From contig JAOBWM010000147.1 in assembly GCA_025463365.1 (NCBI GenBank), positions 1 to 56,957 of the forward strand: 56,957 nucleotides of DNA. The letters run 5' to 3'. The translations under genes and the position numbers were made by a program. This document shows, in pieces, positions 5,085 through 9,301 of this stretch. The stretch is from Acidimicrobiales bacterium. Its GTDB lineage: Bacteria; Actinomycetota; Acidimicrobiia; Acidimicrobiales; Iamiaceae. Each line of letters begins with the position of its first letter. Position 1 is the first letter of the stretch. The notes beneath the pieces were generated by a model. It saw nothing but the letters and a program-made list of their open reading frames with translations, ran no database searches and was not told the DNA's origin.

Positions 5085-6428
5085 ATGGGTCCCGTCGACG
5101 GTCCTGTCGACGATCCCGGCGACGGGAGCGGCGCCGGTGCCGGCGCCGGCCACGAGGATCGATCGGGCCTGCTCACCACCGGGTCCGCGACCACCGCGAC
5201 CACCGCGACCGCCGCCGCGCCGTCCGCATCGCCTGGCCCATCCGGACCGTCGGCGGATCGCGATGCGTTCATCGACTTGGTGCGAGCGTTCAGCCTGCTC
5301 GTCGTCATCGCCTGGCACTGGGTGTTCACGATCATCTTGTGGCACAAGGACGGGCCGCACGCCAGCAACCCGATCGGGTTCACCCGCGGCCTGTTCATCG
5401 CCACCTGGCTGTTCCAGGTGATGCCGCTCTTCTTCTTCGTCGGCGGCTACGCCCACACCGAGGCGTACGAGGCTGGCTACGCCCGCGGCAAGTTCCGCAG
5501 CACCCTGGGCTTCGCATGGAAGCGAGCCGGTTCCCTTGCCCGGCCGGCCCTGATCCTCGCGTTCTTCTGGTGGGGCCTCGGGTCGGTCGCGGTCACGCTC
5601 TACAACGTCCACGGCGTCCCCCGAGCCGTGAAGCTGATCCTCAGCCCGCTCTGGTTCATCGCCGTCTACCTGCTGCTGATCCTGCTCTTCCCGATCACGC
5701 ACTGGCTCCACGAGAAGTTCGGCGGCTTGGTGCTGGTGTGGGGTGTCGGCATCGGGGTGCTGGCCGATGTCGCCCGGTTCAGCCACCATGTCGAGTGGGC
5801 CGGTTGGATCAACATGGTCGTGATCTGGGGGACCTGCCACCAGCTCGGCTACTTCTGGGAGGAGCTCGTCGCCCTCGGCCGGCGGGTGGCCTGGGGCCTG
5901 GCCTGGACGGGTTTGTTCGCACTGGCCGGCCTGGTGTCGAGCGGCGTGTACCCGGGCTCGATGGTGGGCGTCCCCGGCGAGAAGTTCTCCAACATGGCGC
6001 CGCCCACGATCTGCATCCTCGCCCTGCTCCTCTTCCAGGCCGGTGTGGCGCTCCTCCTGCGCCCATGGGTCCTCGAGCGGCTGGCCACCTCGCGTCGTTG
6101 GGCCAGCACGAACGAGGTCATCAACCGGTTCTCGCTGCCGCTGTTCCTGTTCCACTCCACCGGCCTGGCCCTGTGGGCGGCGTTCGGCCACTTCGTGCTG
6201 CACAACCGCACGGTCACGCACCCGACGGGGTGGTGGTGGCTCGGGCGGCCCTTCGCCTTCCTCGGCCCCCTCGCCCTCACGATGCCCATCATCTTGGTGC
6301 TGGGCCGCGGCTACGTGAAGAAGCCCCGCACACCGTCCTCGGACGCACCGCCGCCCTCGTCGTCATCGTCGTCATCGTCCTCGTCGTCGTCTTCGTCGCC
6401 CCCATCCACCGCCACCGCGCCCGCCTGA
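5085..6428 (+). CDS. acyltransferase-3 family membrane protein with polyserine tail
   Basis: This 447-residue integral membrane protein has about ten hydrophobic segments. The first carries DLVRAFSLLVVIAWHW, the Arg/His signature of acyltransferase-3 (OafA-like) proteins, which move acyl groups to sugars or lipids across the membrane. There is no SGNH domain, unlike the four large paralogs at 42-54 kb. Residues 1-55 are a Gly/Ala/Thr-rich cytoplasmic leader. The C-terminus, after LGRGYVKKP, is a run of 14 serines and a Pro/Thr tail. ATG 5085 was chosen because the frame upstream is antisense to the CPBP gene; GTG 5082 is an alternative. The acyl donor and acceptor are unknown. Confidence 0.82.
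   Translation: MGPVDGPVDDPGDGSGAGAGAGHEDRSGLLTTGSATTATTATAAAPSASPGPSGPSADRDAFIDLVRAFSLLVVIAWHWVFTIILWHKDGPHASNPIGFTRGLFIATWLFQVMPLFFFVGGYAHTEAYEAGYARGKFRSTLGFAWKRAGSLARPALILAFFWWGLGSVAVTLYNVHGVPRAVKLILSPLWFIAVYLLLILLFPITHWLHEKFGGLVLVWGVGIGVLADVARFSHHVEWAGWINMVVIWGTCHQLGYFWEELVALGRRVAWGLAWTGLFALAGLVSSGVYPGSMVGVPGEKFSNMAPPTICILALLLFQAGVALLLRPWVLERLATSRRWASTNEVINRFSLPLFLFHSTGLALWAAFGHFVLHNRTVTHPTGWWWLGRPFAFLGPLALTMPIILVLGRGYVKKPRTPSSDAPPPSSSSSSSSSSSSSSPPSTATAPA
6357..6398 (+). repeat. TCG/TCA trinucleotide run encoding 14 serines
   Basis: Fourteen consecutive serine codons, mostly TCG with some TCA, TCC and TCT, lie at the 3' end of the acyltransferase gene. The tract is a trinucleotide microsatellite, so slippage would change tail length without breaking the frame. 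Confidence 0.9.
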
Positions 6429-6572
6429 GGGCCCGCGGTCGTGGCGTTCAGGAGGAGACCGGACGGCCAGGTAGGAGGGTCAGGTTTCGGCCCGACCCCT
6501 TCACGCCCCGAGCCCGGGGGACCAGCCTCGAGGTGGCGCCGGTCGAGCGGCCGTGGCCTCGACGGTCCCCCG

Positions 6573-7112
6573 ATGCCCCTCCGATCGGGTCGATGCGACC
6601 GTCCCGGAGAGGTCTCGCTCGTCGTCGTCGCAACCGACGATGCCGAGCTGCGCACGGCAACGCTCGCCCTCGCTCCCCGGCTCGACCAGGAGCGGTTCAG
6701 CGGCCGGGCCCGTGAGACCCTGCCGTGGGCCGATCGGGTCACGACGATGACCCCGTTCGCGGTGGTCGCCGACGGTGCGCCCGTCGGGTTCGGGATCCTC
6801 GACACGACCGAGCTGCACCTGCTCGCGCTCACCCCGCGCCCGGACCGAGCCGTCCTCCTGCGATCGTTCTACGTCGACGCCGCGCACCAGGGCCGGGGCA
6901 TCGGCCGCCGCGCCGCAGCCGAGATCGGGATCCTCGCCCGCGACGTCGCCGCCCAGGCGACCGAGGTCGTCCTGACCGTCGACGAACACAACCCGATCGC
7001 CGCGCACACCTACCGCGCTGCGGGATTCGTCGACGACGGCGACCGGTACCTCGGCGGGACCCTCGGCCCACAGCACATCCTCCGCCTCCCCCTCCCACCC
7101 CGGCCCAACTGA
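6573..7112 (+). CDS. GNAT-family N-acetyltransferase
   Basis: The conserved part spans about 165 residues. Motif A for acetyl-CoA binding is Q-G-R-G-I-G-R, preceded by the beta-strand LLRSFYVDAAH; the last motif is HNPIAAHTYRAAGF. The substrate could be a protein N-terminus, a small amine or an antibiotic; nothing in the sequence decides. The start is uncertain. ATG 6573 (MPLRSGR) gives 179 residues, while a GTG at 6441 would give 223, adding an Arg/Gly/Pro-rich leader that looks non-coding. No clear ribosome-binding site supports either. It follows the acyltransferase on the same strand and precedes the 61-bp repeat array. Confidence 0.8.
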   Translation: MPLRSGRCDRPGEVSLVVVATDDAELRTATLALAPRLDQERFSGRARETLPWADRVTTMTPFAVVADGAPVGFGILDTTELHLLALTPRPDRAVLLRSFYVDAAHQGRGIGRRAAAEIGILARDVAAQATEVVLTVDEHNPIAAHTYRAAGFVDDGDRYLGGTLGPQHILRLPLPPRPN

Positions 7113-7154
7113 CCGCCGACCACCCCCACCGACCCGATCACCGCCAGACGCCAG

Positions 7155-7566
7155 GTGTGCGCGCCACCACGCGCCCCACGCGCCACAACGCACACACCCC
7201 GCCGACCCCGTCCCTCCTGTGCGCGCCACGGCGCGCCCCACGCGCCACAACGCACACACCCGACCGACCGTCCCACGTGTGCGCGCCACCACGCGCCCCA
7301 CGCCCACAACGCACACACCCCGCCGACCCGTCCACGTGTGCGCGCCACCACGCGCCCCACGCGTCACAACGCACACACCCGACCGAACCGGCTCTCCCTG
7401 TGCGCGCCAGGACGCGCCCCACGCGCCACCACGCACACACCCCGCCGACCGGTCCCACGTGTGCGCGCCACCACGCGCCCCACGCGCCGCAACGCACACA
7501 CCCGGCCGAACCGGCTCTCCCTGTGCGCGCCACGGCGCGCCCCACGCGCCGGAGCGCACACACCCT
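7155..7566. repeat. tandem array of seven ~61-bp units with inverted ends
   Basis: Seven degenerate copies begin near 7155, 7217, 7277, 7336, 7397, 7459 and 7521 (period 59-62 bp). Each has a core of about 45 bp that opens with (G)TGTGCGCGCC, contains ACGCGCCCCACGCG and closes with CGCACACAC. The outer GTGTGCG and CGCACAC are reverse complements, so every unit can form a stem with a loop of about 27 nt. The 15-20 bp linkers alternate between two kinds (CCCGCCGACC-like and GACCGAACCGG-like), which points to a higher-order period of about 122 bp. The plus strand is strongly C-rich. All frames give low-complexity peptides, so I treat it as non-coding. Confidence 0.9.
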
Positions 7567-7638
7567 CGCTCCAGCGGGCGGGGGGCGGCGGGCGGTTCGG
7601 AGGGTGGACGTTGGGGTGGGCTCTGGCAGCCTGGTGGG

Positions 7639-9042
7639 GTGACGATCACCGCGACGAGCGAGGCGGGCGCCAGCGCGTCGGCGACAGTTGGCGTCACGCG
7701 CCTGGCCGACACCGCCAGCACCGCCAGCACCGCCAGCACCGCCAGCACCGCCAGCACCGCCAGCACCGCCAGCACCGCCAGCACCGCCAGCACCGCCAGC
7801 ACCGACACGGACCGCCCCAGTACCGCCAGTACCGCCAGCACGGCCCGCCCCAGCACCGCCAGCAGCCTTGGGAGGGCCCGCGCCGACGAGGTCCGCACCG
7901 GCACAGGGACGGGCGTCGGGCCGGGGCCGCTGCGGATCGGGCCGCATGAGGTGTGGCCACCCGTCGTGCTGGCGCCCATGGCCGGAGTCACCAACGCGCC
8001 GTTCCGGGCGTTGTGCCGTGCCCAGGGTGCCGGGCTCTACGTCAGCGAGATGATCGCGGCGCGGGGGTTGGTCGAGGGGCACGAGAAGACGCACCACCTG
8101 GCCCGGTTCGGGCCGGACGAGTCCCCGCGCTCGATCCAGCTGTACGGGACGAACCCGGTCGTGCTCGGTGACGCTGCCCGCAAGCTGGTGGGCGAGCTCG
8201 GCGCGGAGCACATCGACCTCAACTTCGGCTGCCCGGTCCGCAAGGTCACCCGACACGGCGGCGGCTCGGCCCTCCCGTGGCGTCGCAAGCTGTTCCAGGC
8301 CGTGGTGCGAGCCGCGGTGCTCGGTGCCGGCGACGTGCCGGTCACAGTGAAGCTGCGCAAGGGAATCGACGACGCGCACCTCACCTACCTCGACGCCGGG
8401 CCCATCGCTGAGGGCGAGGGCGCGGCCGCAGTCGCGTTGCACGCGCGGACCGCCGAGCAGGCGTACTCGGGGTCCGCCGACTGGTCGGCGATCGCCCAGT
8501 TGAAGGCCGCTGTCACGACGGTGCCGGTCCTCGGCAACGGCGACATCTGGGTCGCAGCCGATGCACTCCGCATGGTGGCCGAGACGGGCTGCGACGGCGT
8601 CGTGGTGGGCCGGGGCTGCCTCGGTCGGCCGTGGCTGTTCGCCGACCTTGCCGCCGCGTTCGACGGGCGCTCCGTCGACTCGGCGCCCGCCATCGGCCGG
8701 GTCGTGGCGACCATGCGCGACCACGGCCGTCGCCTGGCGGAGTGGCATGGCGAGTCGGTCGGGGTGCGCGATCTGCGCAAGCACGTCGGTTGGTACCTGC
8801 AGGGGTATCCGGTCGGGCCGGCGGTGCACCGCCGCCTCGTGCAGGCCGACACGCTCGAGCAGTTCGAAGCCATCCTCGACGAGCTCGACCCCTCGATCGA
8901 GCTCCCCCCCGGCGCGCTCGGGCTCCCCCGAGGCCACCAGCACGGGCCCAAGCCGGTCACCGTGCCCGAAGGCTTCTGGACCGACCGCGACGACCCGACC
9001 CCGCTCGGCGCCGCCGCCGACTCCTACACCAGCGGCGGCTGA
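7639..9042 (+). CDS. dusB: tRNA-dihydrouridine synthase with low-complexity N-terminal extension
   Basis: This FMN enzyme reduces uridines in the tRNA D-loop. From residue 111 on, the family signatures are clear: LAPMAGVTNAPFR, the catalytic Cys198 in NFGCPVRK followed by HGGGSAL, TVKLRKG, and the FMN-phosphate segment GNGDIW / GVVVGRGCLGRPW. From GTG 7639 the protein has 467 residues, of which the first 104 or so have no counterpart in ordinary Dus proteins: residues 25-55 are Thr-Ala-Ser repeats encoded by a 9-bp DNA repeat. A second possible start, GTG 7951 (VWPPVVLAPM), gives 363 residues and a more usual size. Neither start has a good ribosome-binding site. The catalytic part is certain; the N-terminus is not. 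Confidence 0.88.
   Translation: MTITATSEAGASASATVGVTRLADTASTASTASTASTASTASTASTASTASTASTDTDRPSTASTASTARPSTASSLGRARADEVRTGTGTGVGPGPLRIGPHEVWPPVVLAPMAGVTNAPFRALCRAQGAGLYVSEMIAARGLVEGHEKTHHLARFGPDESPRSIQLYGTNPVVLGDAARKLVGELGAEHIDLNFGCPVRKVTRHGGGSALPWRRKLFQAVVRAAVLGAGDVPVTVKLRKGIDDAHLTYLDAGPIAEGEGAAAVALHARTAEQAYSGSADWSAIAQLKAAVTTVPVLGNGDIWVAADALRMVAETGCDGVVVGRGCLGRPWLFADLAAAFDGRSVDSAPAIGRVVATMRDHGRRLAEWHGESVGVRDLRKHVGWYLQGYPVGPAVHRRLVQADTLEQFEAILDELDPSIELPPGALGLPRGHQHGPKPVTVPEGFWTDRDDPTPLGAAADSYTSGG
7711..7803 (+). repeat. 9-bp tandem repeat (ACCGCCAGC)x10
   Basis: There are ten head-to-tail copies of ACCGCCAGC plus a final ACC, then degenerate copies to about 7863. If the upstream dus start is used, this codes for repeated Thr-Ala-Ser. 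Because 9 bp is a multiple of three, copy-number changes would keep the frame. Confidence 0.93.
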
Positions 9043-9301
9043 CCGGCCTGCCGGCGAACTGGGACGCGAAACCACGACCCGGCTCGATCACCGCCCGGCT
9101 CGGTGTGCGGTGCATCGAGGTCGCCACAACACTCGGGCTGCCATGCCTGCAACCCCGCAGTGAAGGGAACGACGCGGTCGGACGCTCGGAACCCGCTCCC
9201 ATCTCGGGTCCTCTCTCCGTCGGCATGCTCACCTCGGAGGCGGGTCGAGGAGACGGAAGCCGGCAATGGGGATGGTCATGTCGTCGGGAGACCGAGTCCG
9301 A
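9043..9301. other. convergent intergenic region
   Basis: A 259-bp space separates the converging dus and maf genes. I find no convincing coding frame, RNA gene or strong terminator in it. Confidence 0.5.

What the first reader, a model, noticed from the sequence alone, without database searches (positions are those of the whole stretch)
7155..7566. Seven-unit 61-bp tandem array with self-complementary unit ends
Each unit carries a ~45-bp core bounded by GTGTGCG and CGCACAC, with two alternating linker types giving a ~122-bp super-period. It lies in a gap ahead of dus, is not coding in any convincing frame and is not CRISPR-like, because its linkers repeat. It could be a structured RNA series, a protein-binding array or a recombination hot spot.
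Basis: seen in the sequence. Interest (0 to 1): 0.6.

Follow-up and report, generated by a model that had tools for sequence, protein, structure and literature searches.

The report
Genome-wide tandem arrays of palindromic repeats
The seven-copy array beside dus is one of at least 24 places in this bacterial genome where the same 44-base palindrome has settled between genes and multiplied in tandem; it resembles the REP palindromes of other bacteria, but neither their usual transposase nor their terminal tag was found.

Summary
In detail: seven units lie at 7155-7564, each a 44-bp imperfect palindrome plus a 16-18-bp linker; two linker types alternate A-B-A-B-A-B. It is not local. The same core (family F1) occurs at 24 or more loci of this genome, in about 110 units, nearly all intergenic. 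A sister family, F2 (TTCTGAGCG..CGCTCAGAA, also 44 bp), shares its interior and four of nine outer-stem pairs; other stem pairs differ by double compensatory changes. Neither pattern occurs in 297 other genomes of the order. F1 arrays favour gaps between convergent genes (8 of 18, against 15% background; p=0.004) and show no strand preference relative to transcription. No Y1/RAYT transposase gene was found in this genome or 11 congeners. In several arrays the linkers resemble the adjacent flank, so growth in place is likely. Best reading: a species-private REP-like extragenic palindrome, seeded singly and expanded in tandem, probably mostly selfish or neutral. Unexplained: the source of its mobility, and a near-constant 61-62-bp spacing despite locus-specific linkers. 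RNA function was not shown: pairs within F1 do not covary beyond column composition. It is not CRISPR and not a known Rfam family.

The parts
7155..7198 (+). F1 core, unit 1 (C-rich strand on +)
7199..7216 (+). linker type A
7217..7260 (+). F1 core, unit 2
7261..7276 (+). linker type B
7277..7319 (+). F1 core, unit 3 (1-bp deletion)
7320..7335 (+). linker type A
7336..7379 (+). F1 core, unit 4
7380..7397 (+). linker type B
7398..7441 (+). F1 core, unit 5
7442..7458 (+). linker type A
7459..7502 (+). F1 core, unit 6 (best covariance-model score in the genome, 67.6 bits)
7503..7520 (+). linker type B
7521..7564 (+). F1 core, unit 7
6573..7112 (+). upstream gene, GNAT-like acetyltransferase (name from sequence reading; start uncertain); its stop lies 42 bp before the array
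7639..9042 (+). downstream gene dus (tRNA-dihydrouridine synthase-like); orthologues in 10 congeners

Best explanation
The array is one expanded copy of a species-private, REP-like (repetitive extragenic palindrome) element. The unit that spreads is most likely the 44-bp quasi-palindrome F1. It settled as single copies between genes, most often next to gene 3' ends, and then grew in place into head-to-tail arrays of core plus neighbouring DNA, by replication slippage or unequal recombination. Larger duplications, such as the two-unit A-B block here, gave the super-period. Shown: dispersal, palindromy, intergenic position, more similarity within than between loci, a related sister family F2 with compensated outer-stem changes, and no match in relatives. 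Inferred: mobility of the core as a hairpin by an unidentified or lost enzyme, and growth in place. Cellular role: probably mostly neutral or selfish and tolerated at 3' ends, with at most a secondary effect such as a bidirectional hairpin at transcript ends or a binding site for a DNA protein (about 30%).
For: The same core is at ~20 other loci by DNA similarity and at 24 or more by covariance model. Single copies (L028, L030, L081, L026:4745), pairs (L017, L022, L080) and arrays of up to about 10 units coexist. Core identity is 87.6% within and 75.5% between loci (label permutation 0 of 2000). Linkers are locus-specific (within-locus score 0.40, between -0.04, shuffled -0.10), and own linkers match own flanks better than other loci's do (left p=0.024, right p=0.024), clearest in L017, L019, L014 (left) and L016, L022 (right). 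F1 versus F2 global score 11.75 against -1.4 +/- 3.2 under a palindrome-preserving shuffle, p<1/3000; 89% of cells paired and pairs 2-44 (C-G/G-C) and 5-41 (A-U/U-A) changed on both sides. Convergent-gap excess, 8/18 versus 56/367, p=0.004. Published precedents: REP clusters of singletons reiterated in tandem with flanking DNA, mostly downstream of genes (PMC3733652), and tandem REPIN clusters that include flanking sequence (PMC3116915).
Against: No Y1/RAYT transposase gene found in this genome or 11 congeners, so the mobiliser is unknown. No fixed GTAG or CGTC tag beside the core. The spacing is nearly constant (61-62 bp in 42 of 75 spacings) although linkers differ between loci, which independent random duplications would not predict. 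The flank-linker test is only moderately significant, and some flanks do not match, including the window's own. No target-site duplication was seen by eye at the single-copy loci, and no clean empty site exists because congeners are too divergent (about 70% protein identity for menD).
Confidence: 0.74

Rival explanations
1. A functional array of protein-binding sites: each palindrome is a dimer site, and a fixed spacing of about six helical turns lets a nucleoid or topology protein (gyrase, a SMC loader, a ParB-like protein) bind cooperatively at many loci.
For: The outer stem is nearly invariant (8-38 G-C in 99 of 99 units) and the spacing is tightly 61-62 bp over unrelated linkers. Two families keep the palindrome through compensatory changes. 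E. coli REPs are reported gyrase targets (PMC3733652).
Against: Copy number runs from 1 to about 10 with no sign of a needed minimum. F2 has other spacings (69-71, 81-82, 88, 91, 96, 107). A conserved essential site would be expected in congeners, but both families are absent there. No candidate protein was identified.
Confidence: 0.13
2. A series of structured RNAs: the G-rich strand is transcribed and the hairpins act at RNA level (3'-end stabilisation, termination, or processed small RNAs).
For: G-rich strand folds better (mean -27.6 versus -20.4 kcal/mol over 112 units); stem mismatches are G-U rather than A-C on that strand (268 versus 39); arrays are often at gene 3' ends. PMC3733652 uses the same arguments for REPs.
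Against: The G-U excess is fully explained by column composition (shuffled 267 G-U, 33 A-C), and C-A is not avoided at pair 7-39 (12 seen). In co-directional gaps I counted 4 loci where genes read the G-rich strand and 4 where they read the C-rich strand. No T tract or terminator-like site and no Rfam hit.
Confidence: 0.09
3. A purely local minisatellite beside dus, with chance resemblance elsewhere because the sequence is GC-rich.
For: Tandem arrays of unrelated sequence also occur in this genome, and the neighbouring (CACCGCCAG)n expansion shows local repeat instability.
Against: 24 or more loci with E-values to 1e-17 in this genome, against 0 matches in 297 other genomes and 0 control matches in this genome.
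Confidence: 0.02

Closest known systems
REP elements, GTAG and CGTC superfamilies (PMC3733652)
   Same: Short extragenic palindromes in many copies; several families per genome, some species-specific; mainly in co-directional and convergent gaps; G-T pairs in stems; clusters reiterated in tandem with flanking DNA; CGTC families also lack a dedicated transposase.
   Different: 44 bp rather than 20-40 bp; no fixed GTAG or CGTC tag; [quoted passage not shown] a search of that paper's text for 'actinobacter' found nothing.
REPINs and their tandem clusters with RAYT (PMC3116915)
   Same: Ordered tandem repeats of near-identical units that include flanking sequence, scattered over the genome.
   Different: A REPIN is two inverted REPs with a RAYT gene in the genome. 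Here the unit is one palindrome and no Y1_Tnp gene was found in the genome or in 11 congeners.
MIRU-VNTR loci of Mycobacterium tuberculosis (from my own knowledge; not tested here)
   Same: Dispersed intergenic tandem arrays of roughly 50-100-bp units.
   Different: No sequence comparison was run; MIRUs are not defined by a hairpin.
BOX elements of pneumococcus (PMC3049150)
   Same: Variable numbers of boxB modules in tandem, predicted stem-loops, dispersed small repeats.
   Different: BOX is composite (boxA-boxB(n)-boxC); no constant end modules were seen here.
CRISPR arrays
   Same: Regular spacing of partly palindromic repeats.
   Different: Linkers repeat within a locus and units vary; cas genes were not searched for specifically.

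Membership tests
Repetitive extragenic palindrome (generic) | short palindrome in many copies | tested here: met
   44-bp quasi-palindrome, about 110 F1 units at 24 or more loci; F2 52 exact matches
Repetitive extragenic palindrome (generic) | extragenic position, mainly convergent and co-directional gaps | tested here: met
   8 convergent, 8 co-directional, 2 divergent among assignable loci; 1 locus (L081) falls in a predicted ORF of uncertain start
REP GTAG/CGTC superfamilies | unpaired GTAG or CGTC motif at one end | tested here: not met
   no fixed bases beside the core over 18 listed left flanks
REP/REPIN with RAYT | REP-associated Y1 tyrosine transposase in the genome | tested here: not met
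   PF01797 absent in this genome and 11 congeners, found in 5 of 14 control genomes including E. coli
REPIN | two REPs in inverted orientation as the unit | tested here: not met
   arrays are head-to-tail single palindromes; orientation is hard to call in L029 because cores are near-symmetric
CRISPR | near-identical repeats with unique spacers | tested here: not met
   linkers are repeated within loci
CRISPR | cas genes nearby | not tested
   no family search for cas genes was run
Known RNA family | Rfam covariance-model match | tested here: not met
   no match up to E=1 in 6400-9300
Intrinsic terminator series | GC stem followed by a T run | tested here: not met
   0 sites in 7050-7700
MIRU-VNTR | copy number varies between strains | not testable with these tools
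   one genome per species is held

The most novel reading that the evidence does not exclude
A transposase-free way of writing palindrome arrays with a built-in ruler: an unknown enzyme or cooperative DNA-binding protein of this genus recognises the F1/F2 hairpin and sets a unit spacing of about 62 bp (F1) or mostly about 71 bp (F2) at unrelated loci, while each species renews the stem sequence (other palindromes were seen in two congeners).
Probability: 0.12. Interest if true: 0.72.

Novelty: new variant of a known kind. Interest (0 to 1): 0.42.

Why it matters
REP elements are usually explained by RAYT transposases. A genome with at least two related, species-private palindrome families in arrays, in a genus where no Y1 transposase was found, is a natural case for asking how such elements spread without one and what keeps their spacing constant. 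In practice, several contigs of this assembly end inside these arrays, and such arrays could serve as strain-typing markers.

Tried and rejected
Chance similarity: rejected. Relatives' weak covariance-model hits: G025 (L052) and G017 (L054) look like coding sequence, G005 (L053) is a weak intergenic hit. The only named hit of the pattern scan, Streptomyces tricolor (L079), looks like a chance match in coding sequence; that collection may withhold this genome. Viral contigs: none. RNA function by covariation within F1: not supported, WC+GU pairs do not exceed shuffles. Interior similarity F1-F2 by simple shuffling was marginal (p=0.012); the whole-length, palindrome-preserving test is much stronger. 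Y1/RAYT mobiliser: not found. Empty sites: dus and menD loci of congeners carry no F1 array but are too diverged to show insertion boundaries; several of those loci were read in contig orientation. Literature on this in Acidimicrobiia: no paper held both terms.

Full report
Observation. The array is real: Tandem Repeats Finder gives 7156-7565, period 62 and 123. Seven cores of 43-44 bp start at 7155, 7217, 7277, 7336, 7398, 7459 and 7521, and two linker types alternate strictly. It lies between a GNAT-like acetyltransferase ORF (ends 7112) and dus (GTG at 7639). There is no Rfam match and no terminator-like site.

It is a genome-wide family. A 106-nt query found 74 matches in this genome, and a covariance model of the core found about 110 units at 24 or more loci. 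The count is a lower bound: only 150 candidates were scored, and several arrays sit at contig ends (C185, C110, C177, C108). C177 and C108 share linkers and are probably one array split by assembly. Copy number runs from one (L028, L030, L081, L026:4745) to about ten (L014). Nearly all lie between genes; L081 falls inside a predicted ORF whose start is uncertain.

Anatomy. On the G-rich strand the core pairs almost end to end (pairs 2-44 to 20-26, five-base loop); positions in the outer stem are nearly invariant, for example 8-38 G-C in 99 of 99 units. The G-rich strand folds better (mean -27.6 versus -20.4 kcal/mol). However, pairing and G-U excess within F1 are no greater than when 3' letters are shuffled among units, so within-family covariation gives no support for an RNA function.

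A sister family. An own-genome sample of contig starts revealed F2, TTCTGAGCG..CGCTCAGAA, 44 bp between TCTGAGCG and CGCTCAGA, also in tandem arrays; 52 exact matches in the whole genome. F1 and F2 align end to end. Under a null that keeps the palindrome, the similarity is beyond all 3000 shuffles. Four of nine outer-stem pairs are identical, and pairs 2-44 and 5-41 are changed on both sides in every F2 against every F1. This shows that the palindrome was kept while its sequence changed, though it represents only a few independent events. It does not tell DNA hairpin, RNA hairpin and dimer-binding site apart.

Distribution. F1 and F2 patterns have no match in 297 other genomes of the order, with zero control matches in this genome. 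The 84,980-species pattern scan gave one match, in coding sequence of Streptomyces tricolor. Congeners carry other palindromes: G004 has GGTTGGGGTCCGACCCC at many loci and three tandem copies after menD; G003 has AACTTGTGGG..CCCACAAGTT and GAACTTTGGGTCC..GGACCCAAAGTTC. Whether these are related to F1/F2 was not tested. The relatives are distant (best menD 72% identity), so absence there is expected for a fast-evolving repeat. The class of the organism was not verified here.

How it grows. Cores are more alike within loci than between (87.6% versus 75.5%). Linkers are alike within loci and nearly unrelated between them. Own linkers match own flanks better than chance on both sides (p=0.024 each), most clearly in L017, L019, L014, L016 and L022; the window's own flanks do not match. 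This favours growth in place from a single core, as described for REP clusters and REPIN clusters that include flanking DNA (PMC3733652; PMC3116915). Against a purely random process stands the spacing: 61 or 62 bp in 42 of 75 cases over many loci. An inherited 62-bp unit whose linkers have diverged beyond recognition would also explain that, and I could not exclude it.

Where it sits. By the simple codon-usage gene caller, 8 of 18 assignable F1 loci lie between convergent genes against 56 of 367 gaps in the sample (p=0.004). In co-directional gaps I counted four loci in each orientation. This fits tolerance near gene 3' ends, or a bidirectional effect there, rather than a strand-specific RNA.

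Mobility. No Y1_Tnp (PF01797) gene was found in this genome or 11 congeners, while 5 of 14 control genomes scored. Some of these genomes are incomplete. Either another enzyme moves the palindrome, or the mobiliser was lost, or the elements spread by a recombination route without transposase.

Verdict. REP-like by position, palindromy, copy number and clustering; not a member of the tagged REP superfamilies and not a REPIN, since tag, RAYT and inverted pairing were tested and not met. I file it as a new variant of a known kind.

Noticed in passing
L022:1524-1885, L084:7550-7843, L180:11235-11626, L196:11588-11855, L206:2787-3012, L148, L160: Second palindrome family F2 (TTCTGAGCG..CGCTCAGAA) in tandem arrays with spacings mostly 69-71, also 81-82, 88, 91, 96 and 107 bp.
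   Followed up: yes
L148:12506-12804: Third tandem hairpin array, CCAGCGCC..GGCGCTGG, period about 70, 4.2 copies; its relation to F1/F2 was not tested.
   Followed up: partly
L094:3269-3422 (G004, after menD) and other G004 loci: A congener has its own dispersed palindrome (GGTTGGGGTCCGACCCC), in three tandem copies at this locus.
   Followed up: partly
L216-L235 (G003 pieces): A congener's intergenic palindromes AACTTGTGGG..CCCACAAGTT and GAACTTTGGGTCC..GGACCCAAAGTTC, several copies in 400 kb.
   Followed up: no
L053:1500-1650 (G005): Weak F1-model hit flanked by two copies of ATCTGCGCAGATTCTGTGCG between genes.
   Followed up: no
window 7623-7634: CTGGCAGCCTGG just before the dus start; CTGGCACGCTG-like motif also just before the dus start in L109, L111, L112 and L113, possibly a conserved leader or promoter element.
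   Followed up: partly
window 7710-7864: (CACCGCCAG)n expansion inside the predicted N-terminus of dus (AST repeats).
   Followed up: no
L160:1896-2562: A 143-bp tandem repeat, 4.7 copies, in a predicted intergenic stretch; may be coding.
   Followed up: no
L030:2961-3123: Single F1 copy and an F2-like inverted repeat within about 160 bp, near an integrase-type transposase ORF (L030:3277-4431, named from sequence reading).
   Followed up: no
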